A stretch of 47,428 nucleotides of DNA from Emticicia aquatilis (GTDB lineage: Bacteria > Bacteroidota > Bacteroidia > Cytophagales > Spirosomataceae). The stretch lies in contig NZ_BMKK01000024.1 in the NCBI RefSeq assembly GCF_014644295.1, forward strand, positions 1 to 47,428. The letters run 5' to 3'. Of this stretch, positions 17,608 to 32,438 are shown in pieces. The notes below the pieces were generated by a model. It made no database searches. It saw only the letters and a program-made list of their open reading frames with translations, and was not told the origin of the DNA. Each line of letters opens with the position of its first letter. Positions within the stretch are counted from its first letter, which is position 1. A program made the position numbers and the translations under genes.

Positions 17608-17673
17608 GATTGAATAATTGAAATTGTATAGAAAGGGAAGTTAAATAAAAGCAACTTCCCCCCAGAAATGGAT

Positions 17674-18358: not shown

Positions 18359-19903
18359 TCAACGGCTTACTCTATAAAGCCCATTAAGTTTCAGTCCAAA
18401 CAGCCAGTCATTGTTTCGGTAAGACAGTGTTTTGAGTTGGTATGAAACATACGGACTTAGCTGAACCGAGAATCGTTTCCAACGTTTTTCGATGCCTGTC
18501 GATAACATCCAGTTGTTGAATGGAGTTACTTTTATACTTTCGGTTAGGCCTTCTTGCTGATTTTCTTTGATGAAATCATGGTGCGAAAAAGAGGTGATTT
18601 GGCGAAGATTGACATCTAAATCTGTGCCTGTTGAAAATAATACAGTATAATCTTTTCGTAACGGCAGACGATAATTGAGGTAAAGCGGGATTCTGAACAG
18701 CACCTGATGTGCCTCAATATCTTTAATTGGCGAACTCAGTGGCAAATCTAAGTCATGTTGCTCACGGAAATCTCGTTCGGTTTTACGTTTGAAATCATCT
18801 TCATCGCCAAAATGCTCAAAACCTAAGAAACTTACATTAAGGCCGGTTGTCATGCTCCAGCGTTTACTAAACAAAACTTCGGTCAAAATACTCGTTCCGA
18901 TTTGCCCATTGTCGATATTACTTCCTAAACCTACCCGGTATTTTAGCGATGGTAAAGTGATTTGTGGCATTCTGAAACCAAATTTTTTTGAACTTGCATC
19001 TACCCAACGTGCGGTTTTAAGCTGACGGTCAGCAAAACTAATGGCAGGAGATAATCCGAGTGGGTTGTAACCTTTACTTTTTAAATCTTTTAATGATAAA
19101 GTTTTTAGGCTTACCTCTTCTAATTCTGACTGATTTGCAGGAGTTTGAGTAGTGTTATTTGCTTGATTATCAGTGTTTTGTGTGATTTTCGATTCTTTGT
19201 TTTCTGAATAGTCTTTTGGAGCAGATTTGCCACCAGAATTTAAATCAGATTTATTTCCTACAAAACTATTTTGTTGTGCAATAGTCTCAAATCGCTTCTT
19301 TGATGTGTTATAGCCTTTGTTGGTGGCATTACTTGTATTTTTATTGATATTTTTACTGAAATTATCTTTGTTAGTTTCTTCTTTACTTAGATTTGAAATT
19401 GATTTTTCAGAATTTTTACTTGCAGCAACGGCTGTATTTTCTGAAATGTCACCGCCATTTTCAAACGGAGTATTTTCACTACTATTTGTTTGAGGTTGTG
19501 CCGCTATGCTCTCTTCGTAGTCATCAACTTTAATTTCGTGTTTGATGTGCTTAACAACATAAACCGTATCGATTTTTTCGACAATAACAGGCGAAGACTT
19601 CTCTTTTAGAACTGTTTTTGAAGCCGTTTGTGTTGATTTTTGTTCTAATTGTTGGTTTAATTCTGAGATTTTATTTAGTAAAGATTTATTCTCATTCGCT
19701 TGAAAAATGGTTGTTGTTAGTAAAGTTAGAATCATGAGCGTACCAACCGAATAGGTAAAGATATGCCCAAAGCGTTGCCATAGGCTCAGAGGAATGTGCT
19801 GATTGACATACCCTTGAACTCGGTCGATTTCGTCTTCACTGAAAGGTGGGTGAAAGTTTTCAACTTTGCGTCGAAAAGCCTCATCAAATTTGTCAGTTTT
19901 CAT
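18359..19903 (-). CDS. Anti-sigma-factor-like transmembrane protein fused to a barrel-like domain
   Basis: 514 residues from ATG 19903, which overlaps the sigma gene stop by 11 bp; the longer frame from 19936 is not needed. Order: ~45-residue cytoplasmic charged N-terminus (MKTDKFDEAFRRKVENF), one membrane segment (about 49-68, YSVGTLMILTLLTTTIF), short coiled coil, a ~180-residue Asn/Ser/Lys-rich linker, then from about residue 310 a beta-rich domain (YRVGLGSN, GTSILTEVLFSKRWSMTTGL, FRIPLYLNYRLPL, LFGLKLNGLYRV) like an outer-membrane barrel. No HxxxCxxC zinc motif. Position and topology mark it as the regulator of the coupled ECF sigma factor, possibly spanning the envelope to sense it. Confidence 0.82.
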   Translation of the reverse strand: MKTDKFDEAFRRKVENFHPPFSEDEIDRVQGYVNQHIPLSLWQRFGHIFTYSVGTLMILTLLTTTIFQANENKSLLNKISELNQQLEQKSTQTASKTVLKEKSSPVIVEKIDTVYVVKHIKHEIKVDDYEESIAAQPQTNSSENTPFENGGDISENTAVAASKNSEKSISNLSKEETNKDNFSKNINKNTSNATNKGYNTSKKRFETIAQQNSFVGNKSDLNSGGKSAPKDYSENKESKITQNTDNQANNTTQTPANQSELEEVSLKTLSLKDLKSKGYNPLGLSPAISFADRQLKTARWVDASSKKFGFRMPQITLPSLKYRVGLGSNIDNGQIGTSILTEVLFSKRWSMTTGLNVSFLGFEHFGDEDDFKRKTERDFREQHDLDLPLSSPIKDIEAHQVLFRIPLYLNYRLPLRKDYTVLFSTGTDLDVNLRQITSFSHHDFIKENQQEGLTESIKVTPFNNWMLSTGIEKRWKRFSVQLSPYVSYQLKTLSYRNNDWLFGLKLNGLYRVSR

Positions 19904-20498
19904 TGAGTTTATTTTTTCGCACTGCGTAAATATCAAATAAATGAGGATAATGAATGCGTATCATTTCCTGTAATTTTATGCGAGCATCTTGAAGGTTCGA
20001 TTTCGATGTGCCTTCTTGTATGCCGAGACGCTCCGCAATTTCTTTATGTTTATAGCCCTCAACTACATAAAGCATGAAAACCATGCGATACATCGGTGAA
20101 AGCTTACGAACAAGCCCCATGATTTCTTCAACCGAAAGCTTACTAATCACGTCGTCGTCGAAGTCAGTTACTTCTACTTCATCGACTGCAATATGGAGTT
20201 GGTATTTTTTATTACTTCTATAATAATCAATGGCCGTATTGACCATGATTGTGCGAACCCACGCTTTGAAAGGTTGAGCCGAGTCGTATTTAGGTAGATT
20301 ATTAAAGATTTTCAAGAAACCATCATTGACCATCTCTTCGACTTCTTGCTCGTTGCTCGAATATCTCGCACAGATACTCTTCGCAAAGCCCAAATGCAGC
20401 TTTATGAGCGTCCGTTGAGCCTGACTGTTATTATCAATACAGGCTTTTATTACGCTATCGAGGTTATCTTCCGAAAATGTACTTTTCTTGAAAAACAA
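19893..20498 (-). CDS. ECF-type RNA polymerase sigma factor
   Basis: 201 residues from a TTG start at 20498; upstream to the in-frame stop there is no ATG. Region 2: AQRTLIKLHLGFAKSICARYSSNEQEVEEMVNDGFLKIF, FKAWVRTIMVNTAIDYYR. Region 4: EEIMGLVRKLSPMYRMVFMLYVVEGYKHKEIAERLGIQEGTSKSNL, a complete helix-turn-helix. Both domains and the linker are intact. It directs polymerase to a small regulon; four sites TTACCCCAC-N17-CGTA, one in its own upstream region, are the probable targets. Coupled to the anti-sigma gene by an 11-bp overlap. Confidence 0.93.
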   Translation of the reverse strand: MFFKKSTFSEDNLDSVIKACIDNNSQAQRTLIKLHLGFAKSICARYSSNEQEVEEMVNDGFLKIFNNLPKYDSAQPFKAWVRTIMVNTAIDYYRSNKKYQLHIAVDEVEVTDFDDDVISKLSVEEIMGLVRKLSPMYRMVFMLYVVEGYKHKEIAERLGIQEGTSKSNLQDARIKLQEMIRIHYPHLFDIYAVRKNKLNEN

Positions 20499-20607
20499 TG
20501 GATACTGATTTATTACATTTACGAATTTATTAAAGCATTGATTGTGAGTGCGTTAGCATTGCTGACTTTAATAAGCTTCGTCTAAAAAATTATATTCATA
20601 AAGGTAG

Positions 20608-20637
20608 TACGTATGCCCGCAAAAAAGGGTGGGGTGG
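20608..20637 (-). promoter_or_regulatory. ECF sigma promoter, autoregulatory copy
   Basis: On the minus strand CCACCCCAC (20637-20629), exactly 17 bp, then CGTA (20611-20608), 110 bp before the sigma factor start. Same spacing and core as the three plus-strand copies. Confidence 0.75.
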
Positions 20638-20675
20638 AAATAGAAAAATAATATTTTTTTCAAAAAAAACTTTTT

Positions 20676-20705
20676 TTACCCCACGCTTTTATTCGGCTCG
20701 GCGTA
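20676..20705 (+). promoter_or_regulatory. ECF sigma promoter of the barrel gene at 20749
   Basis: TTACCCCAC at 20676-20684, 17 bp, CGTA at 20702-20705, 43 bp before the ATG. It faces away from the sigma gene's own copy; the two -35 elements are about 40 bp apart. Confidence 0.8.
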
Positions 20706-20748
20706 AAGATAGGTAATTACTCATTTTTACATTTTAATATTAATACCT

Positions 20749-21468
20749 ATGACACGTTTTGCAAAGTTGATGATTTTATCGGCATTATTGATGGGCTTTA
20801 GCTCAGCTACTGTATTGGGACAAGACTCTACGAAGTCATCAATTCAAACGATTTTTAAGAAAAAGAAAGGTGGGGCTAAATTAAATTATTTGGGCGTTTA
20901 TATTGCTCCCGAGTATCAATTCGGACAAGTTGGTGGAGTATTTACGTCGTTAGCGGGAGGCTCATTTATGTTGCAATTCAATAAAAAGTTTGCAGTTGGT
21001 ATGACTGGTTACAGCAGTTTTAGAAATCAATCGACTGGTGTTGATGGGATGTTTGGTGGACTAAAATTTGAATATACCGTAAAACCCGATGCGGCGGTTC
21101 ACGTTTCGTTCCCATTGGTTGTTGGTGTAGCAGGCAATAATTTCCATTTCGGAGATTTCGACCACGATGGTTTTAGAGGTGATAGGGATGGTAATTTTGA
21201 CCCGAACGCTGATGGAACAAAGCCAATGAGAGATGGGAGTTTTTCAAATACAACGTATCGCCTGATTCAACCTGGAGTTGTGGCTGAGGCAAACCTTTCT
21301 CGTTTTGCAAAAGCATTCGTTGGAGCAAATTACCGATTTGCATTTGATAATAGTGGTTTGAATAATGACTATAAAGGGTTTTCGGCAAATATTGGTCTAA
21401 AATTGGGTATTTTTGATTACGCAGTTAATAGAAAACCAAAGAAGAAAAAACACGAAAGTAAATTTTAA
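20749..21468 (+). CDS. Outer-membrane beta-barrel protein under the ECF sigma factor
   Basis: 239 residues. Signal peptide to about residue 25 (FSSATVLGQ). The mature protein starts with a Lys-rich stretch, then barrel strands (YLGVYIAPEYQFGQVGG, GSFMLQFNKKFAVGMTGYS, GGLKFEYTV, VHVSFPLVVGVAG, FVGANYRFAFDNSG, FSANIGLKLGIFDYAV). The long loop near 130-160 (DFDHDGFRGDRDGNFDPNADGT) is Asp/Gly-rich, resembling a calcium-binding loop. C-terminus Lys-rich. Family not recognised. Divergent from the sigma/anti-sigma operon with a matching promoter, so a direct regulon member and possibly a partner of the anti-sigma protein. Confidence 0.85.
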   Translation: MTRFAKLMILSALLMGFSSATVLGQDSTKSSIQTIFKKKKGGAKLNYLGVYIAPEYQFGQVGGVFTSLAGGSFMLQFNKKFAVGMTGYSSFRNQSTGVDGMFGGLKFEYTVKPDAAVHVSFPLVVGVAGNNFHFGDFDHDGFRGDRDGNFDPNADGTKPMRDGSFSNTTYRLIQPGVVAEANLSRFAKAFVGANYRFAFDNSGLNNDYKGFSANIGLKLGIFDYAVNRKPKKKKHESKF

Positions 21469-21580
21469 TTTGATGTTCGTGCAACCATTTTTAGAATGAA
21501 TGCCGTCATTGAAAATGTAATTACAAAACAGAAGCTTCGCTCTAAACAAAATCATTTACTATTTATTTAATACTAATCGA

Positions 21581-21871
21581 ATGAAAAAATTAGTTGTTTT
21601 ATCATTTTTTGCTCTTGGAAGCATCTATTTTGTTGCATGTAATAGAGATAATATTAGCCCAGATTCGATGTCGGTTGATGCAGTTTCAGCTGCCACTGCT
21701 GATTCGACAAAAAAACATAAACCGCATGGTGATTCGTTAGGTCATAAAGGTCCAAAAGGTATGCCACATGATTCTTTGGGACATAAGCCACCAAAAGATT
21801 CTCTTGGCGTAAAACCACCAAAGTTGGATTCACTTGGACACAAACCAAAGAAAGGACCAAAACACGGTTGA
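21581..21871 (+). CDS. Small His/Lys/Pro-rich repeat lipoprotein
   Basis: 96 residues. Lipoprotein signal with Cys20 (YFVAC). From residue 45 the protein consists of imperfect repeats of a DSLGHKPPK motif, with DSLG at 51, 64, 73 and 83, and six His among many Lys and Pro. No family recognised. The His-rich repeats could bind metal ions or polyanions; this is inference. It lies 112 bp after the ECF-controlled barrel gene and is possibly read from the same promoter. A terminator follows. Confidence 0.75.
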   Translation: MKKLVVLSFFALGSIYFVACNRDNISPDSMSVDAVSAATADSTKKHKPHGDSLGHKGPKGMPHDSLGHKPPKDSLGVKPPKLDSLGHKPKKGPKHG

Positions 21872-21910
21872 TTAGAATTTAAAAGTTAATATATTTTTGT
21901 GGTTTGGTAG

Positions 21911-21945
21911 AAACTTCCCGATGTTATGTCAGGAAGTTTTTTTGT
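21911..21945. terminator. Convergent terminator
   Basis: AAACTTCC (21911-21918) pairs with GGAAGTTT (21932-21939), followed by a T-run. It lies between the repeat lipoprotein and the convergent LytTR gene. Confidence 0.75.
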
Positions 21946-21954
21946 TTCTGTATT

Positions 21955-22278
21955 TTATAAAGTTTGTCTTTCTTTCCAGTTTCGCCCTCGACGGCGTGAG
22001 AAATTGATGATGATTGAGTTGGACAACTTCATGGCATTTTCGTGTTCTTCCACCACAAATTGCTGATTGACCAAATAACTCTTATTCATGCGTATAAAAG
22101 CAAACTGACGGAATCGTTCTTCTAATTTTTTGAGAGTTGTAGCTACAATCAATTTTGTGCCATCGCTGAGATGAATAATCGAATAATTTACATCGGCTTG
22201 AAGCATTATGACCTCGTTGGGGCATACTTTTTGTCGGCCTCCGATGGAAACTTGATTGGCATTTTCTATGGTTTTCAT
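21955..22278 (-). CDS. Stand-alone LytTR DNA-binding protein
   Basis: 107 residues. Almost the whole length is a LytTR domain: VCPNEVIMLQADVNYSIIHLSDGTKLIVATTLKKLEERF, then FIRMNKSYLVNQQFV and a basic end (NFSRRRGRNWKERQ). No receiver domain. LytTR proteins bind pairs of short direct repeats. The gene begins 13 bp after the fibre-like gene's stop and so is probably its cotranscribed regulator. Confidence 0.88.
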   Translation of the reverse strand: MKTIENANQVSIGGRQKVCPNEVIMLQADVNYSIIHLSDGTKLIVATTLKKLEERFRQFAFIRMNKSYLVNQQFVVEEHENAMKLSNSIIINFSRRRGRNWKERQTL

Positions 22279-22291
22279 GGCGTTGTATGGG

Positions 22292-23434
22292 TTATTCTTC
22301 GTAGGTTACTACTATTTTTATGTCTTTACTCAAAATATTGGCACTATTTCCGGGGCTGTTCGTAATAAATATATTTGAGCCATCATATTGATACGAAAAC
22401 TCATATCCAGTTACGCCTGTGTAGCCATTACCTACCCATGCTTCGGCAGCAGAACCATTGTATCTAACCAAAACATTGATAGCAATAATTTTTGAAGAAG
22501 ACACACCGTGAGGAATAGATACATTACCTCCTTGCGATGCACTTGTGGTGCTGGTTATCTTTTTGATTTTGATTTTTGGTGCGGCCACATCGTCTCCCAA
22601 AGTAGTAAAACCAGATACTTTTACATTACCGTTACCTTGCAGGTCAAGAATGGGTGTTGTACCACCATAATCGAATGATACAAAATTATTGGCTGCTGTG
22701 GCACTTGATAAATTAAAATATTGCCCAAAATAGCGGGTAGCAGTAGAATTTTCCATTCTAATCATGCCATTCGAGGCGTCAACGGTTGTTTTTAAAGTGA
22801 TATGCGGGTTAGTGGCGGTGTTGCCAGTATTGTGCCAAATATCAAACTTACCCGCAGGAGTTAAACAACTCAAGCAAGCTTTTAGCGTTGGAGCTAATTG
22901 TAAAAATGTAGCACCATTTGTTCCAATGCCAAGAAAAGCATTTTCTTGGTTAAAGATTGAGGCATTGCCAGAATTGTTTTCGCCGATGTATAAACCATCG
23001 GTGCTTGTTGTGCCGATGGTTTCGTTGGTTAATTGTAAAATTGAAGAAGAGCCTGTACTTGGATTATGAAGTTGTAAATTGTAATTGGGGCTTACTGTTC
23101 CGATACCAACTTTTCCGTCGAGGGCAAGTCTTATTCTTTCTTGTCCATTTGAACCAAGCGATAATTGACTCGATAAGCTTCCACCCAAGTGGATTCGGTC
23201 GGCAAAAGTAGAAATTGACCCCATGTCTGTTCCTGTGTTTCCATCGCCAGTGGCTGAGTTTTTGAAATATAAATCAGCACCGAATGAACCTGTTGTAGAA
23301 AAATGCCCGTAAGTAGTGCCTGTCGATTTTACTACAAATCTTTTACTGGCTGTTCCAGGTTCTAATAAAACGCTTTGTCCGAATGATACAACCGAAATCA
23401 TAACCAAAGCTAATGCAATAATATTTTTTTTCAT
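22292..23434 (-). CDS. Secreted fibre-like beta-repeat protein
   Basis: 380 residues from ATG 23434 (an in-frame ATG at 23476 would precede the signal peptide). Signal peptide MKKNIIALALVMISVVSFGQ. The mature part is Gly/Ser/Thr/Asn-rich with tail-fibre-like blocks: GQERIRLALDGKVGIGTVSPNYNLQLHN, GLYIGENNSGNAS and LDLQGNGNVKVSG, as in trimeric fibres and secreted Bacteroidota proteins with S74-type ends, though no S74 peptidase domain is seen. Single CLSC pair near the middle. It has a TACAT-N4-ATGTA palindrome 72 bp upstream, shared with the response-regulator gene. Confidence 0.8.
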   Translation of the reverse strand: MKKNIIALALVMISVVSFGQSVLLEPGTASKRFVVKSTGTTYGHFSTTGSFGADLYFKNSATGDGNTGTDMGSISTFADRIHLGGSLSSQLSLGSNGQERIRLALDGKVGIGTVSPNYNLQLHNPSTGSSSILQLTNETIGTTSTDGLYIGENNSGNASIFNQENAFLGIGTNGATFLQLAPTLKACLSCLTPAGKFDIWHNTGNTATNPHITLKTTVDASNGMIRMENSTATRYFGQYFNLSSATAANNFVSFDYGGTTPILDLQGNGNVKVSGFTTLGDDVAAPKIKIKKITSTTSASQGGNVSIPHGVSSSKIIAINVLVRYNGSAAEAWVGNGYTGVTGYEFSYQYDGSNIFITNSPGNSANILSKDIKIVVTYEE

Positions 23435-23505
23435 GGTTTTGAAAATTAAGATTTTGTGAAGAATTATTTTCGACAAAATTCAATTTTAAAACCACGCCCG
23501 TCAAT

Positions 23506-23519
23506 TACATGATGATGTA
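23506..23519. promoter_or_regulatory. TACAT-N4-ATGTA operator, fibre gene copy
   Basis: Palindrome TACAT-GATG-ATGTA, 71 bp upstream of the fibre-like gene. The flank GTCAAT before it is identical to that of the copy at 27020. Confidence 0.6.
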
Positions 23520-23604
23520 GGGAATTGAGAATTAAGAATGTAGAATTGAGAATGTAAAAATAATAATCGGTGGGTTAGCGTTGTCGAACCCATAAATTAT
23601 TAGC

Positions 23605-24237
23605 TTATATAATCCGTTCATTAATGGCTTTTGCTACTGCTTCGGTTTGGGAATGTACGTGTAGTTTTTCGTAGATATGTTTGATATGAGCCCGCACGGT
23701 ATCAATGCCCGTGCCGATTTGGTGGGCAATCATTTTGTAGCTTAGCCCTTTTACGAGGTTTTCAAGAACTTCTTTTTCTCGTTTAGTGAGTTGATAGTCA
23801 ATGTTTTGTGTGTTTTTCTGACTCATAAATGCCAACACTTTTCGAGCAATAGCGGCCGACATCGGTACACCACCTTCATGAACACTCAGAACACCTTCAA
23901 CGATTTGAGCAGGTGAGGTGGTTTTCAGTAAATAACCATTTGCTCCGAGTTTGAGTGCTTCAAAGATATGTTCATCGCTATCGAAAACTGTTAGCATCAC
24001 AACCTGAATACTGTTTGAGTGTTTTCTGATGGTCTTCAAACCACTAAAACCATCAGCAATTGGCATATCAATATCCATCAAAACTACGTCAGGTTTTTGG
24101 CTAAGTATTTGGTTGTCAATGTTTTCGCAGTTTTCGTAGCTATCTAAGAATTCAATACCAGCCGAACTTTCGAGTAGAAACGAAAGACCCACCCTAAGTT
24201 TTGGATTATCTTCATATAAAAGCACTCTGACTGGCAT
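23605..24237 (-). CDS. NarL/FixJ-family response regulator
   Basis: 210 residues. Receiver domain 1-125 with acidic pair (YEDNP), phospho-acceptor Asp55 in VVLMDIDMP, and the LTVF and LLKTT switch segments. LuxR-type helix-turn-helix from about 148 (LTKREKEVLENLVKGLSYKMIAHQIG, DTVRAHIKHIYEKL). It pairs with the histidine kinase encoded just upstream. DNA targets inferred: TACAT-N4-ATGTA sites at 27020, 24285 (its own leader) and 23506. Confidence 0.94.
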   Translation of the reverse strand: MPVRVLLYEDNPKLRVGLSFLLESSAGIEFLDSYENCENIDNQILSQKPDVVLMDIDMPIADGFSGLKTIRKHSNSIQVVMLTVFDSDEHIFEALKLGANGYLLKTTSPAQIVEGVLSVHEGGVPMSAAIARKVLAFMSQKNTQNIDYQLTKREKEVLENLVKGLSYKMIAHQIGTGIDTVRAHIKHIYEKLHVHSQTEAVAKAINERII

Positions 24238-24284
24238 ATTCTAATTTTTTTACAATGTTAGTATTTTTTAATTCTATAAAAAAT

Positions 24285-24298
24285 TACATTTTGATGTA
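24285..24298. promoter_or_regulatory. TACAT-N4-ATGTA operator, response-regulator copy
   Basis: TACAT-TTTG-ATGTA, 47 bp before the response-regulator start, suggesting autoregulation. Confidence 0.55.
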
Positions 24299-24347
24299 GC
24301 ATGACTTTACCAAATTGTGCTGTATCGAACTTAATCGTTTATGATTT

Positions 24348-25424
24348 TTAGGAAGAAATTGGAATCTTGACTTCAATTTCTGTTCCGCTACCAATTTCAG
24401 AGCTAATACTAAAAAATCCTTTTAATTGCTCGGCTCGCTTTTTCATGTTTATAATTCCATTTCCCATTTTTTGTTGGTGCAGGTCAAACCCTTTACCATT
24501 ATCTTTGATGCTCAATATTAATAAATTTTGGTGTTTTAATAGGTTTATAGTTAGGGTTTTAGCTTCGGCGTATTTTGCAACATTATTGATGGCTTCTTTA
24601 AAAATCATATAAAAGTCGTAGTATTTCTGCGAACTCCACTTGATTGTTTTAAGTGATTCGTCGGCATTAAATTGATATTCGATGTTTTGGGGTTCGAGCA
24701 TTTTTGCTGTAAATTCCTGCATTCTGATGATTAATTGTTCAAAATTATCATTTAATGTTTTGTTCGTCCACACAATATCACTCATATTATCGAGCATTTC
24801 TTGGGCATTTTCGCTTATTTGATTGAGTAAGGTCTGCGTTTTTTCGGGCGAATTTGCTAACTGATTTTTAGCTACTTGTGTCAGAATCGCAATGCTGCTG
24901 AGAGTGGAACCGACATCATCGTGCAAATCTCTCGCAATTTTATCTTGCACTTTTTGGGTACGCATTTTCTGCCGAAATCTGTACATTAAAAACAAATAAA
25001 TGATGATACCAAGCACCGTAAGCACATACAAAAATATTGAAGGAACAAACCACCAACTTTGCCAAAATGCTGGTTTTATTTTAAATTTCAGTGCGTTTTC
25101 GTGTTTATTTCTAAGATTCTTTACTGCAAACTCATACTCGCCCCCATAAAGATTAGAATATGACATAAAGTTTTGGTGACCAATTTTTATCCATTCTATA
25201 TTATCCGAGCCTTTGAGCTGGATGGCATATTGGGCATTGAGTGAGTCTGATTTATCAACGAAGCTGATACCAATGTGTTGGGGTTTAAATGCTAATTCGA
25301 TGGGTTTTGTGCAGTCATAAATGGTGCTATCATCGAACACTTGAAATCTTAGAAAAGTGATGTTTTTCTGAGAGAAGCAACTATTATAAAGGCACAACAG
25401 CAAAATAGTAAAAACTAAACGCAT
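24348..25424 (-). CDS. Sensor histidine kinase (HisKA_3/NarX type) with Y_Y_Y sensor domain
   Basis: 358 residues. Signal peptide to about 18. The periplasmic part (20-118) looks like a Y_Y_Y domain (IEWIKIGHQ, YGGEYEFAVK); the beta-propeller that normally precedes it in this family is absent. One membrane helix about 125-147. HisKA_3: ARDLHDDVGSTLSSIAIL with phospho-His168. C-terminal HATPase: EAINNVAKYAEA (N box), DNGKGFD (G1), GNGIINMKKRAEQLKG (G2). Works with the NarL-type regulator 110 bp downstream. Confidence 0.93.
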   Translation of the reverse strand: MRLVFTILLLCLYNSCFSQKNITFLRFQVFDDSTIYDCTKPIELAFKPQHIGISFVDKSDSLNAQYAIQLKGSDNIEWIKIGHQNFMSYSNLYGGEYEFAVKNLRNKHENALKFKIKPAFWQSWWFVPSIFLYVLTVLGIIIYLFLMYRFRQKMRTQKVQDKIARDLHDDVGSTLSSIAILTQVAKNQLANSPEKTQTLLNQISENAQEMLDNMSDIVWTNKTLNDNFEQLIIRMQEFTAKMLEPQNIEYQFNADESLKTIKWSSQKYYDFYMIFKEAINNVAKYAEAKTLTINLLKHQNLLILSIKDNGKGFDLHQQKMGNGIINMKKRAEQLKGFFSISSEIGSGTEIEVKIPISS

Positions 25425-25459
25425 AGGAATTGGATTGGGTATAGAAAAGTAGGATTTTT

Positions 25460-26113
25460 CTACGAATTTGCCAAGTTTTCGGCATAATATTTAGTTTTCC
25501 AATAGCCAATGCTTACAAAGATGACTCTTATAAAAATAAAAATCGGTACGATGTAGTCCCATAAAAAAAATATGAAAGAACGATTGAGGTTATAAAGCCA
25601 ACTGTTAAGTGCAGTTAATAATAAATCAAAAATTTGGAAAATAAGTGTCCCAATTATCACCCAAAATAATGGAAATTCTCTTAATGATTCTATGCTTTCA
25701 TCTTTTAAAATTTGGTTGAGAGCAACCAAGAAAAAAATAATTGTCCAAATATTAAAAACCAAGAAAAGATATTGATTCATATAAATTCCATGTAAATATA
25801 AATCAATACAAATGCCTGATAGATAGATAATTAGTGAGAAAAGTAAAATTTGCTTATAAATTTTTGATTTAAGCAAAGTATAGAAAAAAAAAGTACGAAA
25901 TATCATAGTACAGCAGGCACTAACATATATCATAAAATGATTATTGATACCATGTTCGCTAAGTTTGATGGAAATTATGCTGTTCAGATTTGCCAATAAT
26001 AAGCCTCCAAAATACCACCATAAACTACTACTAATGTATTTATGATTGTAAACAGCTATAAGTATTGGTAAAAATAAACTATAAGAAGAAATTTTATAAA
26101 GCCAGTCAGACAT
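25460..26113 (-). CDS. Polytopic membrane protein, unknown, linked to the NarL-type two-component system
   Basis: 217 residues, about seven hydrophobic segments (near 8-25, 32-50, 60-80, 88-108, 115-135, 147-168, 180-203) with few charged residues. No motif recognised. It lies 35 bp before the histidine kinase on the same strand, so probably cotranscribed and perhaps part of the sensing apparatus. Function unknown. Confidence 0.78.
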   Translation of the reverse strand: MSDWLYKISSYSLFLPILIAVYNHKYISSSLWWYFGGLLLANLNSIISIKLSEHGINNHFMIYVSACCTMIFRTFFFYTLLKSKIYKQILLFSLIIYLSGICIDLYLHGIYMNQYLFLVFNIWTIIFFLVALNQILKDESIESLREFPLFWVIIGTLIFQIFDLLLTALNSWLYNLNRSFIFFLWDYIVPIFIFIRVIFVSIGYWKTKYYAENLANS

Positions 26114-26133
26114 AAGTTAGCATATATTATTTA

Positions 26134-26958
26134 TCAACCTGGACAATAATTTGGACACGGACGACTACTTGACGTTCCGCCACCAGAGTGAGTATGGTCT
26201 TTGTAGGTGGCAACTCCTATCATTTGTGTCTCGGTATTTTTATAGATAATATTGAACGCAACTTTATGAATATCAGCCATTGGTGGAACACTAAAAGCAG
26301 CTCCCTTCCTGACATTTAATTCGATGCCTTTTACTTCTGGAATAATATTACCCTCAAAGTCTGCCAAATGATTCATTATTAACTCACGTCCAATAAAATA
26401 TCCTTGAATGGGTTCAGTAAATCCCCTTCTTAAATCATTAATGGAAGGTGTACCCATAGGAATACTTGGCGTTGGACTTAAAGGATTTACAGTAATTTCT
26501 GTTTGATATTTTAGAAGTAAATAATTTTCAGAGAGTATTTTGGGTCCACCCGAAAACCCAGCTTTTGTTATAACTATTTTAGGTACATCATTTTTAGCTT
26601 TCTTTGTAAACCAAATCCAGAAGCCAACAATGCTATTTTCGCCAGTAAAACTTGCATCAAATAAAAATGAAACAAGGTTATTTATGGGAATATAAAAAGA
26701 GCCTATGAGCGAGTTAGAAATACTATAATTAGCATCAAAACCTTGCTCAAAGCCATTTCCTTTGGGACTTATAAAGGAGTTTTGTCTTCCAATAACGGTA
26801 GTGCCATCTCTTCTAACATCAGCTCTATCATTCAAAATTTGCTCCTTTACATAATTATAAAAAGCCGCAACAGCTATTGTATTGTGATTGTCAATAGAAG
26901 CAATATTTGGAATATTGGGGTTGTTTAAAACATTTTTTGGGATTTTTGATTTTGCCAT
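26134..26958 (-). CDS. Unknown protein preceding the two-component cluster
   Basis: 274 residues from ATG 26958, chosen because the region upstream of it (to 27018) is a hydrophobic stretch that would give an atypical start, and the internal start opens MAKSKIPKNVLNN. No signal peptide from this start. Sequence mixed alpha/beta with no recognised family; the C-terminus is striking: HTHSGGGTSSSRPCPNYCPG, a His/Ser/Gly tail with two Cys. If the longer start were used, residues 1-20 could act as a membrane anchor. A perfect 16-bp palindrome lies 61 bp upstream. Confidence 0.65.
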   Translation of the reverse strand: MAKSKIPKNVLNNPNIPNIASIDNHNTIAVAAFYNYVKEQILNDRADVRRDGTTVIGRQNSFISPKGNGFEQGFDANYSISNSLIGSFYIPINNLVSFLFDASFTGENSIVGFWIWFTKKAKNDVPKIVITKAGFSGGPKILSENYLLLKYQTEITVNPLSPTPSIPMGTPSINDLRRGFTEPIQGYFIGRELIMNHLADFEGNIIPEVKGIELNVRKGAAFSVPPMADIHKVAFNIIYKNTETQMIGVATYKDHTHSGGGTSSSRPCPNYCPG

Positions 26959-27019
26959 CGTTTTTTCTTTTAGGTTGAAAAGATAAACGAATGTCAAAAT
27001 AAAAAACGAAATTGTCAAT

Positions 27020-27033
27020 TACATTATAATGTA
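27020..27033. promoter_or_regulatory. TACAT-N4-ATGTA operator, perfect copy
   Basis: Core of a perfect 16-bp palindrome TTACATTATAATGTAA (27019-27034). It lies 61 bp before the minus-strand unknown gene that heads the kinase/regulator cluster. Confidence 0.6.
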
Positions 27034-27200
27034 AGATACGCACGCAACCCTTTTTCATATCGATTCGTCTATTTCAATTAAAGGGATTTAATCTTTTGCT
27101 CAACAATAAATCAAGCTGAAATATTGTTGAATAAAACACTAACCTAAAATTTATATCAACCAAATTCTTCCTTTGTTTATTGATTAAATTTTTCCTCTTG

Positions 27201-27230
27201 TTACCCCACGCATTGCTGAGGGTTTCCGTA
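27201..27230 (+). promoter_or_regulatory. ECF sigma promoter of the DsbD gene
   Basis: TTACCCCAC at 27201-27209, 17 bp, CGTA at 27227-27230, 34 bp before the ATG. Confidence 0.8.
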
Positions 27231-27264
27231 TAGCTAATTAAAGTACCATCAAACCTATTTTTTC

Positions 27265-28635
27265 ATGCACGAACAACAGTCTTTGCTCGGTTTTCTTTCT
27301 GTGGCATTTTTAGCAGGAGTAGCCAATCTTTTTATGCCTTGTATCTACCCGATTATGCCCATGACGGTCAGTTTTTTTACGAAGCAGTCGGATGGCTCTC
27401 GTAAAGCCATGTTTTATGGGTTTTCAATCATGTTTGTTTTTGCTCTAATTGGCTTCGTTACTATGGCCTTTGGAGCTCCATTTCTAAACTTTATCAGTAC
27501 TCACTGGTTGCCAAATCTTATTTTCTTTGTTATTTTTATTGTTTTCGGAGTATCACTTTTGGGGGCATTTGAAATAGTTTTACCTCACCAATTTGTCAAT
27601 CGTATTGATGGGATGTCGGAAAGTGGTGGTTGGTTGGGAATTTTCTTTATGGCCCTAACTTTGGTGGTGGTTTCGTTTTCGTGTACAGCCCCATTTGTGG
27701 GGTCGTTGTTGATTTTGGCCGCACAGGGCGAAGTTTGGCGACCATTATGGGGAATGTTAGCTTTCGGGCTTCCTTTTGGGTTGGTTTTTACACTCTTGGC
27801 GATGTTTCCTCAATGGCTCAAAAGTATGCCAAAATCAGGTGGTTGGATGAACGAAATGAAAGCAGTTATGGGTTTTGCCGAATTTGCTTTGGCACTCAAA
27901 TTCTTGAGCAATATCGACCAAGCTTATCACTTCAATTTATTGCATCGAAATATATTCTTAATCGTCTGGATAATCATTTTCGGATTAATTGCATTTTATA
28001 TTGCAGGTTTCATCAGATTGCCGAAAGACAGTAAAGTAAAGACTTATCATTGGTCGAGAGTGGTTTTTAGTGCTTTATTTTTCATCTTTACGTTTTATCT
28101 GATTCCTGGCGTAGTACAAGATAAACCGCTCGAATTGCTTTCTGGTATTTTACCTCCACAAGATAATAAATCTGAGTTGGCAGGGGTGCCTTCTGAAAAG
28201 CTTCGTCCGATGCCGCACGGTTTATCGGGGTTTGTCGATTACGATGATGCTCTGGCCTATGCTAAGGAAGTAAATAAGCCACTTTTACTCGATTTTACGG
28301 GTTATGCGTGTGCAAATTGCCGTAAAATGGAAGAAAATGTTTGGGTAAAACCAGAAGTTTTGGAGCGACTCAAAAAAGATTATGTGATAGCGTCGCTCTA
28401 TGTGGATGACAAGAAAGAATTGCCCAAAGAAAAACATTATAAATCGACTTATGATGATGAAGTAAAAACAACTATTGGCGACAAAAACATGGATTTGGAG
28501 ATTACGAGGTTCAATAATAATGCTCAGCCATATTATGCCGTAGTCGATGCCAGTGGCAAAACAGTAGTAAATCCAATAGGGTATTCGAGTGTTGAAGACT
28601 TCGTGAAATTTTTGGAAGAAGGTAAAAAGAAATAG
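27265..28635 (+). CDS. DsbD-like thiol:disulfide reductant transporter, lacking the N-terminal periplasmic domain
   Basis: 456 residues. Eight-helix membrane core with the two redox cysteines in conserved context: MPCIYP (Cys26) and SCTAPFVG (Cys140). C-terminal thioredoxin domain from about 325 with CANC (349-352) after LLDFTGYA. Classical DsbD also has an N-terminal alpha domain; it is absent here, as in the common Bacteroidota form. It passes electrons from cytoplasmic thioredoxin through the membrane to periplasmic thiols. Read from an ECF promoter, and just upstream of a Rieske/thioredoxin/ApbE operon with the same promoter type, so the two are co-regulated. Confidence 0.93.
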   Translation: MHEQQSLLGFLSVAFLAGVANLFMPCIYPIMPMTVSFFTKQSDGSRKAMFYGFSIMFVFALIGFVTMAFGAPFLNFISTHWLPNLIFFVIFIVFGVSLLGAFEIVLPHQFVNRIDGMSESGGWLGIFFMALTLVVVSFSCTAPFVGSLLILAAQGEVWRPLWGMLAFGLPFGLVFTLLAMFPQWLKSMPKSGGWMNEMKAVMGFAEFALALKFLSNIDQAYHFNLLHRNIFLIVWIIIFGLIAFYIAGFIRLPKDSKVKTYHWSRVVFSALFFIFTFYLIPGVVQDKPLELLSGILPPQDNKSELAGVPSEKLRPMPHGLSGFVDYDDALAYAKEVNKPLLLDFTGYACANCRKMEENVWVKPEVLERLKKDYVIASLYVDDKKELPKEKHYKSTYDDEVKTTIGDKNMDLEITRFNNNAQPYYAVVDASGKTVVNPIGYSSVEDFVKFLEEGKKK

Positions 28636-28700
28636 AAATTTCAACCAACCTTTCTTTGATAAGATTCGTCTTTAAAATAAGTATCGATAAAAGGAAAACA

Positions 28701-28730
28701 TTACCCCACTCTTTGAGAAGTGGTTACGTA
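28701..28730 (+). promoter_or_regulatory. ECF sigma promoter of the Rieske-ApbE-DUF3570 operon
   Basis: TTACCCCAC at 28701-28709, 17 bp, CGTA at 28727-28730, 39 bp before ATG 28770. Its presence argues against the longer reading frame starting at 28656. Confidence 0.8.
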
Positions 28731-28769
28731 ATCAAAAATATAAACCATTATTTATTAAATTTTAGAATC

Positions 28770-29381
28770 ATGACACGTTACGAGTTTTTGAAATCATTAG
28801 GTTTTAGTGGAGGTGCTTTAATGGCTTTACTTACTTCTTGTGTAAGAGAAGATGATAAATATGTAAATGCTTTAACAGTAGCACCAGATGGCTCAACTAC
28901 TGGTACTACAACAACAGGAACTACTGGCACTACTACGACAGGGACAACTACTGGTACAACAACAACAGGTACTACGACAGGAACGACAACTGGTACTACA
29001 ACAGGAACCACTACTGGAACTACCACAACGACTTCAAACGTGTCAGGTATTATAACTACCGAAGAACTAAATAAAATTACAAGTACTAAACTAAAAATTG
29101 ACCTTACTTCTACAACTTATGCTAAGCTGAAAACAGTAGGAGGGTATACGGTAGTGAGCAATATCGTTGTGGCCCTATCTAAAGCCAACACATACATAGC
29201 GGCTACGGTGACTTGTTCGCATGAACCTAAAAAACAAGTGATATATTACAATAATGAATGGTATTGTACTGCTCACGGAGCAAGATTTTCGCTGACAGGT
29301 GCAGGACTGAATAGCAATGGTAGAGCTGGACTTACTGTATATAAAGTAGCAACAGATGGCAAAACATTAGTTGTTTATTAA
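28770..29381 (+). CDS. Rieske-like lipoprotein with Thr/Gly repeat linker
   Basis: 203 residues from ATG 28770, preferred over 28656 because the ECF promoter lies between them. N-terminus MTRYEFLKSLGFSGGALMAL with lipobox-type Cys24, as in the other Rieske gene. Residues about 43-88 are a pure Thr/Gly tract. C-terminal Rieske fold: CSHEPK (Cys149, His151) and CTAHGARF (Cys166, His169). The first motif lacks the usual Gly (CTHxG), so cluster properties may differ. It heads the operon continuing with thioredoxin, ApbE, DUF4266 and DUF3570. Likely a membrane-anchored electron carrier facing the periplasm. Confidence 0.85.
   Translation: MTRYEFLKSLGFSGGALMALLTSCVREDDKYVNALTVAPDGSTTGTTTTGTTGTTTTGTTTGTTTTGTTTGTTTGTTTGTTTGTTTTTSNVSGIITTEELNKITSTKLKIDLTSTTYAKLKTVGGYTVVSNIVVALSKANTYIAATVTCSHEPKKQVIYYNNEWYCTAHGARFSLTGAGLNSNGRAGLTVYKVATDGKTLVVY
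28896..29033 (+). repeat. ACT/ACA/GGT/GGA codon repeats encoding a Thr-Gly linker
   Basis: About 46 consecutive Thr/Gly codons in TTGTT/TTTG blocks with near-identical 12- and 15-bp units. Such simple tracts can change length by slippage without breaking the frame. Confidence 0.85.
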
Positions 29382-29417
29382 GAGATTTACAGAGAAATAT
29401 TTAAACTAAACTAAAAA

Positions 29418-29861
29418 ATGAAATTTTTAAGCATTCTCCTGACATTCTTCTTGCTTGAAGGAGCTCCGCAATGGGGCAATGATTTCGACAAAGCAAAATC
29501 TGATGCCATTCAGAATCATAAATATATTGTGATTAATTTCTCTGGCTCTGATTGGTGTGGACCATGTATCAAACTCAAAAGAGATATTCTCGATTCTCCC
29601 GAATTTTTAAATTATGCTACATCAAATTTAGCTTTGGTTCGTGCCGATTTTCCAAGATTAAAGAAAAATCAATTGGATAAAAAACAAACGGCAATGAACG
29701 AAGCCCTCGCCGAAAAGTATAATCAAGAAGGAAAGTTTCCGCTCACGGTTTTGGTCGGAGCCGATGGAAAGGTTTTGAAAGAGTGGGACGGCTACCCAAC
29801 AGGTATCACAACCGAAACTTTTATTCAAGAAATTCAGTCGATTATCAATGCTCGCAAATAA
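29418..29861 (+). CDS. Secreted thioredoxin-family protein
   Basis: 147 residues. Short hydrophobic signal (MKFLSILLTFFLLEGAP). Active site SGSDWCGPCIKLKRD (Cys47, Cys50), followed by the thioredoxin fold with cis-Pro segment KFPLTVLVGADG. Probably a periplasmic reductase fed by the DsbD-like protein encoded upstream. Its 3' end overlaps ApbE by 14 bp, showing tight coupling. Confidence 0.9.
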   Translation: MKFLSILLTFFLLEGAPQWGNDFDKAKSDAIQNHKYIVINFSGSDWCGPCIKLKRDILDSPEFLNYATSNLALVRADFPRLKKNQLDKKQTAMNEALAEKYNQEGKFPLTVLVGADGKVLKEWDGYPTGITTETFIQEIQSIINARK

Positions 29862-30780
29862 GGTTCATCAAAAAACGCTTCGCTTAATGGGTAATCGCTT
29901 TACTATCACGGTAGTAGATGACGATGCTCAATGGGCCGAGCAGCAAATTGATGAAGCCATTGCTGAAGTTAGTCGAATCGAAAAGCTTCTGACTACCTTC
30001 AGCAGTGATAGCCAAACCAACCAAATCAACGAAAATGCTGGCATCAGACCAGTAAAAGTTGATAAAGAAGTATTTGATATAATTCAGCGTTCGCTCCGAA
30101 TATCTGCTCTTACTGACGGAGCTTTTGATATAACCTACGGCTCAATCGACAAACGTTTCTGGAATTTTGATAAAGAAATGACTTCACTTCCCGATGCTGA
30201 AACAGCCAAAGAATCGGTCAGATTAATCAATTATCAGAATGTTATTTTAGACGCCCAAAATCAGACAGTTTTCTTGAAAGAAAAAGGTATGAGAATTGGT
30301 TTTGGGGGAATCGGAAAAGGCTATGCTGCCGAACGAGCCAAACAATTATTGATAAAAAACGGAGTAAAAAGTGGGATTGTAAATGCTGCAGGCGACCTAA
30401 GCACTTGGGGAAACCAACCTAATGGAAAACCTTGGACGATTGCCATTGCCGACCCCGACACTCAAAATAAAGCTTTCTCGTACCTCAATATCAGTGGAGT
30501 AGCGGTGGCAACTTCGGGAAATTACGAAAAGTACGTAGTTATTGACGGAAAAAAATATTCGCATACGATTGACCCAAAGACTGGTTTTCCAGTGTCGGGA
30601 ATTAAAAGTGTAACGATTATTTGCCCCAATGCCGAATTAGCCGATGCAATGGCTACACCCATCACTGTTTTAGGAGTTGACGCAGGTCTGGGCCTTATCA
30701 ATCAAATGCAGCAGATTGCTTGTATCATCATCGACGACGACAATAATATATATACATCAAACAACATTAACGTTTCATAA
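29848..30780 (+). CDS. apbE: FAD:protein FMN transferase (ApbE family)
   Basis: 310 residues, family length. Motifs: TFSSDSQTNQINENAG, DGAFDITYGS, GFGGIGKGYAAERA, NAAGDLSTWG, SGVAVATSGNYEKY and the Mg-binding segment YSHTIDPKTGFPV. ApbE attaches FMN covalently to Thr or Ser of periplasmic proteins. No signal peptide or lipobox is visible at either possible start, unlike most ApbE proteins, so the site of action is unclear. It starts inside the thioredoxin gene and ends 2 bp before the DUF4266 gene. The substrate is not obvious: no canonical SGAT flavinylation motif was found in neighbouring proteins. Confidence 0.92.
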   Translation: MLANKVHQKTLRLMGNRFTITVVDDDAQWAEQQIDEAIAEVSRIEKLLTTFSSDSQTNQINENAGIRPVKVDKEVFDIIQRSLRISALTDGAFDITYGSIDKRFWNFDKEMTSLPDAETAKESVRLINYQNVILDAQNQTVFLKEKGMRIGFGGIGKGYAAERAKQLLIKNGVKSGIVNAAGDLSTWGNQPNGKPWTIAIADPDTQNKAFSYLNISGVAVATSGNYEKYVVIDGKKYSHTIDPKTGFPVSGIKSVTIICPNAELADAMATPITVLGVDAGLGLINQMQQIACIIIDDDNNIYTSNNINVS

Positions 30781-30782
30781 AG

Positions 30783-31001
30783 ATGAAATCAATCAAAATT
30801 TTTGCTCTTTTAGCTTATTTACTTAGCTCAATGGCTTCATGTGTAGCGGTGAAAGAGTACCAGAAAAATCGCATCAATGATTCCGAAATGGAACTTGCTG
30901 CAAGAAAAGCTGAGAAGTTTGAAACAAGCTTTTATCTCTACCGAGAGGGTGCATCGGGTGCCAATGGTGGGAAAAGTGGTGGTGGTTGCGGTTGTAACTA
31001 A
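30783..31001 (+). CDS. DUF4266-family small lipoprotein
   Basis: 72 residues. Lipobox Cys20 (SMASC), then VAVKEYQKNRI, a charged middle and the invariant-looking C-terminal tail EGASGANGGKSGGGCGCN with Cys69 and Cys71. The tail and the neighbours (ApbE, thioredoxin, DUF3570) match my memory of the DUF4266 family. Function unknown. The EGASGAN part (55-61) resembles the ApbE flavinylation motif except that the acceptor Thr is Asn; the C-terminal CGC could bind metal or be modified. Starts 2 bp after apbE. Confidence 0.85.
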   Translation: MKSIKIFALLAYLLSSMASCVAVKEYQKNRINDSEMELAARKAEKFETSFYLYREGASGANGGKSGGGCGCN

Positions 31002-31142
31002 CACCGTGGAATGAAGCTCTGCTTCGTTCATGTAATTGGTAAATAAATAATTATAGGTGGTTTCTGGCTACTTATAATGAGCAAAACATTGAAATAGTCG
31101 AATTCAATTGAATCCTTCTCGGCTATTAAAAACTTTTCCCCT

Positions 31143-32438
31143 ATGAAAAAAGTAACATTAGCGATTGGTTTGTACGTAGGCATTTTAAGCGGAGCCTATG
31201 GTCAATACGACGAAACCAAATTTATATTTAAAAATAAAAAGACCGAAACAACCAACAAAAACTCAATGCCCACATCAAGCAAAGAGTATAAATTAACTTC
31301 AAAACCTGAAGCCGAAAGTGGTTTCCGTACATTGAAGCTTGATGAAGTAAACTTTGTTTCGGCATATTATAATCAAGATGGTAATCACTCAGCCGTAACG
31401 GGTGGAGTCGGAACCGAAAAACTGATTGACTTCGCCAATTCGATAGATTTAAAATTGTCATTTACGGATAAAAAAGGTCGTAAACATTCAATTATTGGCG
31501 AAGCTGCTATTGATTATTATTCGTCGGCTTCTTCGGACAAGATTGACCCTCGCTCGGTATCTTCGGCTTCAATGACTGATACGCACTTTTATCCAACGCT
31601 TTCTTGGAGTAGAAAAGACGATAAAAAACACACTACGGTGGGTGCGAGTTTTTCGTATTCGACTGAGTGGGACTATAAATCTCATGGAGGAAATTTGAGT
31701 TTCTCTAAATCATCAAAAGATAATAATACTGAATTAAGCGTAAAACTCGGTGCGTTCTTTGATACTTGGTCGGTTATTTTACCTTATGAAGTACGCCCAG
31801 ATGGCTACGGCTCAGGTGCAGAAGGCGACCAAAATATTGACTATAAACGCCGAAACTCCTATAATTTATCAATCGGTGTTTCGCAGATTATCAATAAACG
31901 TTTACAAGTAATGGCGGTTGTTGAACCTTCGTATCAAGAAGGACTTTTGAGCACGCCTTATCACCGAGTTTATTTTACAGACGGCACATTGAAAGTAGAA
32001 AAACTGCCTGGCACACGTGCAAAATTACCTGTTGGCTTACGTGCCAGCTATTTCTTGGGTGATAGATTTATCATTCGTTCGTTCTATCGTTATTACCAAG
32101 ATAACTGGGGCATGAAAGCCCATACTATAAGCGTTGAAGTGCCTATCAAAATAACTTCATTCGTGTCAGTTACACCGCATTATCGCTTTAATAGTCAAAC
32201 TGCTGTTAACTATTTTGCACCAATCAATAGTCATAAGCTTACCGAAACCTACTATACTTCTGACTTCGATATTTCGGATTTCAGAAGTGCTTTTTGGGGG
32301 GCAGGAATTAGAATTGCCCCACCAGATGGCGTTTTGGGTATCAAACATTGGAATACCGCTGAGTTGCGTTATGGGCATTATAACCGGAGCAATGGTATGG
32401 TAGCCAATATTGTTACGCTCAGTGCCAAGTTTAAGTAA
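31143..32438 (+). CDS. DUF3570-family outer-membrane barrel
   Basis: 431 residues. Signal peptide to GAYGQ (about 21), Lys/Thr/Ser-rich stretch, then a long barrel (VNFVSAYYNQDG, TDTHFYPTLSWSRKDDKKHTTVGASFSYSTEWDYKSHG, LSVKLGAFFDTWSVILPYEVRPDG, SFYRYYQDNWGMKAHTISVEVPI, FWGAGIRIAPPDG, AELRYGHYNRSNGMVANIVTLSAKFK). Order, size and neighbours fit DUF3570, which normally accompanies DUF4266. Probably the outer-membrane partner of the system. It lies 141 bp after the DUF4266 gene without its own ECF site. Confidence 0.87.
   Translation: MKKVTLAIGLYVGILSGAYGQYDETKFIFKNKKTETTNKNSMPTSSKEYKLTSKPEAESGFRTLKLDEVNFVSAYYNQDGNHSAVTGGVGTEKLIDFANSIDLKLSFTDKKGRKHSIIGEAAIDYYSSASSDKIDPRSVSSASMTDTHFYPTLSWSRKDDKKHTTVGASFSYSTEWDYKSHGGNLSFSKSSKDNNTELSVKLGAFFDTWSVILPYEVRPDGYGSGAEGDQNIDYKRRNSYNLSIGVSQIINKRLQVMAVVEPSYQEGLLSTPYHRVYFTDGTLKVEKLPGTRAKLPVGLRASYFLGDRFIIRSFYRYYQDNWGMKAHTISVEVPIKITSFVSVTPHYRFNSQTAVNYFAPINSHKLTETYYTSDFDISDFRSAFWGAGIRIAPPDGVLGIKHWNTAELRYGHYNRSNGMVANIVTLSAKFK

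What the first reader, a model, noticed from the sequence alone, without database searches (positions are those of the whole stretch)
19893..32438. ECF sigma regulon readable from an exact promoter word (TTACCCCAC-N17-CGTA)
Seen: four intergenic copies at 20676-20705, 27201-27230 and 28701-28730 (plus) and 20608-20637 (minus, CCACCCCAC), all with exactly 17 bp between CCCCAC and CGTA, all 34-110 bp before a start codon. I found no other intergenic CCCCAC in the window. Known: ECF sigma factors recognise short -35 and -10 words with fixed spacing and often autoregulate. Inference: the sigma factor at 19893-20498 drives its own operon, the divergent barrel gene, DsbD and the Rieske-thioredoxin-ApbE-DUF4266-DUF3570 operon.
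Basis: partly seen in the sequence, partly recalled or inferred. Interest (0 to 1): 0.85.

Follow-up and report, generated by a model that had tools for sequence, protein, structure and literature searches.

The report
Transenvelope sigma regulon controlling redox operon
In the bacterium Emticicia a stress sigma factor, apparently held in check by a protein that reaches from the cell interior to the outer membrane, appears to switch on itself and a flavin-based redox system through one exact promoter word that can also be read in the DNA of relatives.

Summary
CCCCAC-N17-CGTA occurs four times in the window, always intergenic, and eight times in the 6.75-Mb genome; the other four lie in open frames. 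TTACCCCAC-N17-CGTA is exact three times in the genome, all here. The site before the sigma gene is conserved in Emticicia and in relatives with 57-69% sigma identity.

The sigma partner (18359-19903) has the architecture of Dma/Reo transenvelope anti-sigma factors: cytosolic helices, a membrane helix, a disordered tether and a small outer-membrane barrel. Many related sigma genes have outward-facing twin promoters upstream. Their -35 word follows the sigma region 4.2 helix: CCCCAC with 13 of 14 [QR]DAR sigmas and with none of 46 others.

The target operon (Rieske, thioredoxin, ApbE, DUF4266, DUF3570) carries [ACGT][GC]C[AC]AC-N17-CGTA in 34 of 65 loci of other genera (0.15 expected; other spacings from 10 to 24 give at most 2).

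Best reading: a Dma/EcfO-type pair that autoregulates and drives an extracytoplasmic flavin/thiol redox system. The pair type and the redox cluster are known; the promoter code, the regulon and their link were not found in the papers searched. Nothing was tested at the bench; the inducing signal is inferred.

The parts
19893..20498 (-). ECF sigma factor, 201 aa, TTG start
   Evidence: Pfam Sigma70_r2 1.4e-15, Sigma70_r4_2 5.2e-15; NCBIfam sigma70-ECF 4.6e-26; TTG in the 6 Emticicia orthologs read, own included; recognition helix EGTSKSNLQDAR
18359..19903 (-). Dma/Reo-type transenvelope anti-sigma factor, 514 aa, start overlapping the sigma stop codon
   Evidence: No Pfam hit at E 1; AF2 model: helices 4-17, 23-35 and 41-96, disorder 91-316, strands 321-512; barrel part matches OmpA, OmpX and Ail folds
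20608..20634 (-). sigma autoregulatory promoter: -35 CCCCAC 20629-20634, -10 CGTA 20608-20611
20635..20678 (.). A/T-rich spacer between the two outward-facing -35 elements (44 bp)
20679..20705 (+). divergent promoter of the barrel gene
21581..21871 (+). His/Lys/Pro-rich small lipoprotein, 96 aa; follows the barrel gene in G004, G006 and G007 and the promoter in G017, not found by tblastn in the G005 and G009 loci
   Evidence: no Pfam hit
27204..27230 (+). promoter of dsbD
27265..28635 (+). DsbD-like transmembrane electron carrier with C-terminal thioredoxin domain
   Evidence: Pfam DsbD_TM 1.7e-20, Thioredoxin_7 3.5e-10
28704..28730 (+). promoter of the Rieske-flavin operon
28770..29381 (+). 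Rieske-like lipoprotein (CxH...CxxH)
   Evidence: Pfam Rieske E 0.02, below its cut-off; sequence
29418..29861 (+). thioredoxin-like protein
   Evidence: Pfam Thioredoxin_7 2.8e-11
29848..30780 (+). ApbE flavin transferase
   Evidence: Pfam ApbE 5.7e-84
30783..31001 (+). DUF4266 small CXC lipoprotein
   Evidence: Pfam DUF4266 1.4e-19
31143..32438 (+). DUF3570 protein, probable ApbE substrate
   Evidence: Pfam DUF3570 1.2e-33; PMC8238504 for the family

Best explanation
The locus encodes an ECF sigma factor of the EcfO/Das type held by a Dma/Reo-type anti-sigma factor that spans both membranes. When the outer membrane or its barrel proteins are disturbed (inferred from EcfO-Reo and Dma1/2), the anti-sigma releases the sigma. 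It then reads ACCCCAC-N17-CGTA at four promoters: its own operon, the back-to-back barrel/lipoprotein genes, dsbD, and the Rieske-Trx-ApbE-DUF4266-DUF3570 operon. The product is an electron route from the cytosol (DsbD) to extracytoplasmic thiols, a flavinylated DUF3570 and a Rieske protein. Steps shown by sequence: the sites, their conservation, the partner's predicted architecture, and the match between -35 word and sigma recognition helix. Steps inferred: sigma release, the signal, transcription from the sites, and the direction of electron flow.
For: Site exactness and location. Conservation across Emticicia and 57-69% relatives. Twin promoters of identical hexamers in 18 of 35 sigma upstream regions against 0.1% of Markov-simulated regions. 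CCCCAC before 13 of 14 sigmas with D at helix position 10 and before 0 of 46 others. Anti-sigma architecture. Flavin operons of other genera carry the same promoter form, 34 of 65 against 0.154 expected, at spacing 17. An unlinked homologous pair of genes (44% identity) follows the site in E. aquatica and in G060. Within Emticicia, DUF4266 is present in 7 of 7 genomes with the sigma ortholog and in 0 of 4 without.
Against: No transcript data. The DsbD site is not strict in 2 of 5 Emticicia loci with a DsbD gene and readable upstream; the Rieske site departs from the strict form in G007 (one base) and G005 (base and spacing) (by eye). In genus g2 (5 loci) the operon has no such site although in G011 the sigma pair lies beside it; 31 of 65 operons of other genera lack the strict site. 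In G242, G250 and G355 a CCCCAC-type sigma exists but the operon bears CGCAAC or TGCAAC; in G020 the reverse. The agreement of operon word with sigma word over 30 genomes is only moderately above shuffling (17 against 12.0). The CCCCAC sigmas form one group on the tree, so the helix-word association rests on few independent changes.
Confidence: 0.85

Rival explanations
1. The words are operators for another DNA-binding regulator, such as a repressor or activator, and not the -35/-10 of this sigma.
For: Nothing here measured transcription; the twin sites form an inverted repeat, as operators often do.
Against: Two separated words at a fixed 17-bp spacing and 34-43 nt before three of the four start codons fit a promoter. 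CGTA stays constant while the CCCCAC word changes with the sigma recognition helix. Before 65 operons no spacing other than 17 among 10-24 occurs more than twice.
Confidence: 0.06
2. The promoters are real, but a different ECF sigma of the same genome reads the redox operon, and this sigma reads only its own twin promoter.
For: The own genome has 25 sigma matches at E<=0.001, this one included. In G242, G250 and G355 the operon word does not match the CCCCAC-type sigma found. G017 keeps the sigma and twin site with no flavin gene in the 18 kb read and is not among the DUF4266 genomes listed.
Against: In Emticicia both the sigma's own site and the operon site read CCCCAC, and the own paralog of 54% identity has a different upstream word, GGCAAC by eye. 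Presence or absence of sigma ortholog and DUF4266 agrees in 11 of 11 Emticicia genomes.
Confidence: 0.08
3. The four copies are chance or a repeat element.
For: With two mismatches allowed the genome shows no excess over the reversed control. Emticicia genomes without the sigma ortholog also have 2-3 copies of ACCCCAC-N17-CGTA each.
Against: 0.11 copies expected in the window; all four intergenic; sites recur in front of orthologous genes while their spacers differ.
Confidence: 0.01

Closest known systems
EcfO-Reo of Bacteroides/Phocaeicola (PMC9308784, PMC13114119; passages read)
   Same: Sigma gene followed by a large anti-sigma predicted to span the periplasm with a C-terminal outer-membrane barrel; a response attributed to envelope stress; the sigma gene is itself induced.
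   Different: The regulon described there includes NigD lipoproteins and affects O-antigen length; in the passages read no promoter word and no flavin redox operon is described.
Dma1/Das1 and Dma2/Das2 of B. thetaiotaomicron, ECF21 sigmas (PMC13088901; passages read)
   Same: Four-part anti-sigma architecture: anti-sigma domain, TM helix, disordered tether, barrel; adjacent ECF sigma.
   Different: Linked there to vesiculation and PULs; 'motif' occurs 0 times in the main text.
[quoted passage not shown] passages read)
   Same: Same cluster composition.
   Different: No regulator appears in the passages read. Here a Rieske-like lipoprotein heads the operon and both DUF3570 motif positions read SSAS, not [S/T]GA[S/T].
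Bacillus SigW/SigM-type ECF promoters (recalled, not from a call)
   Same: -10 word CGTA/CGTC and a short -35 ending in AC.
   Different: -35 here is CCCCAC with N17.

Membership tests
ECF sigma factors | Sigma-70 regions 2 and 4 only | tested here: met
   Pfam Sigma70_r2 and r4_2, NCBIfam TIGR02937 over its cut-off
ECF21 group (EcfO/Das) | Score against the group's own model | not testable with these tools
   The ECF classification models are not held; placement rests on the partner's architecture
Dma/Reo anti-sigma family | Cytosolic helical anti-sigma domain followed by one membrane helix | tested here: inconclusive
   Helices 4-17, 23-35, 41-96 predicted with block pLDDT 59-74; sigma binding not tested
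Dma/Reo anti-sigma family | Long disordered tether | tested here: met
   Residues 91-316 almost wholly below pLDDT 50
Dma/Reo anti-sigma family | C-terminal outer-membrane beta-barrel | tested here: met
   Nine strand segments within 321-512, block pLDDT mostly 83-95; Foldseek best match OmpA 1.8e-8, TM-score 0.58 by target length; membrane location not tested
Dma/Reo anti-sigma family | Gene next to its ECF sigma | tested here: met
   Overlapping genes, kept in relatives
DsbD/DUF3570 flavinylation system | ApbE, DUF3570, Thioredoxin_7, DUF4266 and DsbD together | tested here: met
DsbD/DUF3570 flavinylation system | Two [S/T]GA[S/T] flavinylation sites in DUF3570 | tested here: not met
   The window protein has SSAS at 127 and 140; 23 of 24 DUF3570 sequences compared lack [ST]GA[ST]. 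The claim is therefore 'works like', with the site variant unexplained
ECF-type promoter | Transcription start just downstream of the -10 word | not testable with these tools
   No transcript data held

The most novel reading that the evidence does not exclude
A readable promoter code for transenvelope (Dma/Reo-type) sigma systems: the -35 hexamer is set by the region 4.2 helix (CCCCAC with [QR]DAR, GGCAAC with EGTSRSN[LF]xKAR, TGC[AC]AC with EAT[VI]RS[HN], GGAAGC with ESAVRAN) while CGTA and the near-constant N17 stay fixed. A flavin/thiol redox operon has stayed under such sigmas in much of a bacterial family, and in Emticicia its -35 word was rewritten when a CCCCAC-reading sigma took it over.
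Probability: 0.5. Interest if true: 0.75.

Novelty: new variant of a known kind. Interest (0 to 1): 0.66.

Why it matters
Dma/Reo transenvelope anti-sigma factors were described recently; in the passages read here their promoters are not described and their effects centre on NigD, O-antigen, vesicles and PULs. The DUF3570 flavinylation cluster had no regulator in the passages read. A fixed promoter grammar would let regulons be read from Cytophagales genomes, ties extracytoplasmic flavin redox chemistry to envelope sensing, and offers a residue-level prediction (Asp in helix 4.2 for CCCCAC) testable in vitro.

Tried and rejected
Loose genome scanning (two mismatches) gave no excess over control (84 against 96) and was dropped. 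One-mismatch scanning of the extended word found no further intergenic site: its six matches outside the window lie in open frames of 245-770 codons. A strict site before the operon of genus g2 was sought and not found. No ECF21 model was available, and the EcfO and Dma1 papers (PMC3536166, PMC10927553) are not held. Paper searches: Dma; DUF4266/DUF3570 (one paper); ECF21; ECF sigma, promoter motif, Bacteroidetes, flavinylat; EcfO; flavinylat, sigma factor, DsbD, Bacteroidota (three papers, listing only); Emticicia with sigma factor (none); Dma1/Das1/nigD/EcfO/Reo. A promoter description for this group may exist outside the held library. The idea that the operon sits beside its sigma as a rule was rejected: none of the 16 loci L223-L238 has a sigma or anti-sigma match in the 12-20 kb read.

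Controls to note: ACCCCAC-N17-CGTA occurs 5, 3, 4, 6, 4 and 2 times in the six other Emticicia with the sigma ortholog and 3, 2, 2 and 2 times in the four without. In each of the six one copy is a shared site in a 467-485-codon frame, so counts alone separate them weakly; position does.

Selection to note: one search lists 102 DUF4266 matches by my count, 95 outside Emticicia; I read 65 of these 95, 60 fetched by hand to spread over genera and five fetched earlier. The operon pattern was chosen after seeing it in L224, L225 and L232; without these three it is 31 of 62. L267 is cut short. L266, L282 and L284-L286 start at TRX and L267 and L288 at APBE. The twin search was designed after reading the upstream regions; its 35 regions hold close relatives (six Emticicia). 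Sites found with the NNTT pattern enforce two T positions in part of the 36-site table. The -35 class of some tree rows (L048, L059, L063, L109 among them) was set by hand and not by a strict pattern hit. The word agreement over 30 genomes was tested by shuffling: exact 17 against mean 12.0 (42 of 5000 shuffles as high), class 25 against 20.5 (27 of 5000); this ignores relatedness.
Full report
Observation. All other CCCCAC words in the window lie inside ORFs. The whole genome (6.75 Mb, 36 contigs; the window is all of contig 24) has eight copies; the four outside the window lie in open frames of 125, 326, 467 and 459 codons. The longer word TTACCCCAC-N17-CGTA is exact three times, all in the window; the four one-mismatch copies lie elsewhere, in long open frames. 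With two mismatches the genome shows nothing above control (84 against 96), so the signal is carried by the near-exact word.

Setting. The sigma gene (19893-20498) has regions 2 and 4 only and starts with TTG, as the Emticicia orthologs read do. Its stop overlaps the start of a 514-aa protein without a Pfam hit. AlphaFold on an alignment of 16 proteins gives cytosolic helices, a long helix 41-96, a disordered stretch 91-316 and strand segments within 321-512. The barrel part matches OmpA, OmpX and Ail folds. This is the architecture given for Dma (PMC13088901, passages) and for Reo (PMC9308784 and PMC13114119, passages).

Conservation. Of 58 genomes searched, six other Emticicia carry the sigma at 87-96% identity (one cut by a contig end) and G017 at 69%. 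The twin sites upstream of sigma stand in all six Emticicia loci with readable upstream DNA (own included) and in G017 (one spacer of 18 there). Four further species with 57-61% sigma identity keep the sigma-facing site. The other best-match loci, at 55% and below (L047-L068), do not show it. Later three sigmas of 50-58% identity with CCCCAC sites turned up in G242, G250 and G355, so the word follows the sigma clade and not identity alone.

Targets in Emticicia. Rieske operon: strict site in 5 of 7 loci (own, G004, G006, G009, G010); G007 has ACCCAC-N17-CGTA and G005 TCCCAC-N16-CGTA by eye. DsbD: strict in own, G004 and G007; not in G006 or G009, and in G009 the gene lies in two frames; in G005 only a remnant of DsbD was found; in G010 the upstream is cut off. 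Sigma ortholog and DUF4266 go together in the genus: 7 genomes have both, 4 (G001, G002, G003, G008) have neither.

Other targets. E. aquatica (L104) and the more distant genome G060 (L204) both have an intergenic site before a ~400-aa protein; the two proteins are 44% identical over 410 columns. Two related lipoproteins (42% identical) follow sites in G060 and G062. G060 also has a site before a YHYH protein with a type IX sorting tail and before a TonB-receptor-like gene. In five genomes with this sigma the NNTT form of the word was found 15 times against 1 for the reversed control; one of the seven in G060 (L198) is clearly coding.

Promoter grammar. A search for identical outward-facing hexamers, whatever their letters, each followed by N16-18 and CGTA, found twins upstream of 18 of 35 sigma genes, against 0.1% of simulated regions (designed, and the set holds close relatives). 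The hexamers were CCCCAC, TGCCAC, TGCAAC, GGCAAC and GGAAGC, or shifted registers of such words. Across 62 sigma loci, 60 with a readable helix, Asp at helix position 10 marks 14 sigmas; 13 have CCCCAC facing sigma, and the fourteenth (L300) has it on the divergent side. None of the 46 others has it (43 have another word, 3 none by the strict pattern). On a tree built without the helix the CCCCAC sigmas are one group (support 88), so this is probably one switch and not many independent ones.

The redox operon in other genera. DUF4266 occurs in 94 of 222 genomes of the family and 16 of 148 sampled in the order. In 65 operons outside Emticicia, 34 have [ACGT][GC]C[AC]AC-N17-CGTA within 80 nt of the estimated start; 0.154 are expected from the same loci, and spacings 10-16 and 18-24 give at most 2. 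Leaving out the three loci that suggested the pattern it is 31 of 62. The hits fall in 8 of 18 genera; 31 operons lack the strict site. For 30 genomes of this set I read the best-matching sigma: the operon word equals a word of that sigma's own promoters in 17 of 30 and is of the same class in 25 of 30 (shuffled means 12.0 and 20.5). Against: in G242, G250 and G355 the best sigma is CCCCAC-type but the operon is not; in G290 the operon is GGCAAC with a TGCAAC sigma; in G020 (88% complete) the operon has CCCCAC, 153 nt upstream of the estimated start, and the one sigma read has CGCAAC. Only the best sigma per genome was read, so another paralog may serve.

How it works. Shown by sequence: sites, conservation, predicted architecture, helix-word match. 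From the passages read: EcfO-Reo is induced by envelope-damaging toxins and Reo is thought to sense outer-membrane stress; the DsbD/DUF3570 cluster is proposed to pass electrons from DsbD into a thioredoxin-like/flavin system (PMC8238504). Inferred: in Emticicia the same kind of sensor turns on this redox system. DUF3570 here has SSAS at both places where the paper reports [S/T]GA[S/T], so flavinylation needs a test.

Verdict. The sigma/anti-sigma kind and the redox cluster are known; their link, the promoter word and its helix-dependent grammar were not found in the papers searched.

Noticed in passing
window 21872-27264: About 5 kb (by eye LytTR-like, two-component and other genes) lies between the small lipoprotein gene and dsbD here; in G004, G006 and G007 these two genes are near neighbours.
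   Followed up: no
window 31143-32438: Both expected flavinylation sites of DUF3570 read SSAS where the literature gives [S/T]GA[S/T]; 23 of 24 DUF3570 sequences compared lack the latter.
   Followed up: partly
window 16660-18090 (-): A second Rieske lipoprotein and a DUF5777 barrel follow the anti-sigma gene and are kept in G005, G009 and G010; possibly part of the sigma operon.
   Followed up: no
L109 9928-11948: A second sigma/anti-sigma pair of the same type in the own genome (54% sigma identity) has GGCAAC-N17-TGTA upstream by eye.
   Followed up: partly
L331 1501-1527: G020 has the Emticicia-type word CCCCACCCTTTT with N17-CGTA before its Rieske-flavin operon, while the one sigma read in this incomplete genome has another word.
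   Followed up: partly
L100 7063-8404 and L101 11517-11699: dsbD lies in two frames in G009 and is a short remnant in G005; in neither is a strict site found before it.
   Followed up: no
L335 and L336: In G250 and G355 the gene divergent from the CCCCAC-type sigma encodes a protein with KVLEVSA[TS]EIKY, by eye unlike the window's barrel gene (not compared), so the twin promoter may be kept while its partner gene changes.
   Followed up: no
window 20498: The sigma gene starts with TTG in the six Emticicia loci read, a non-ATG start kept across species.
   Followed up: no
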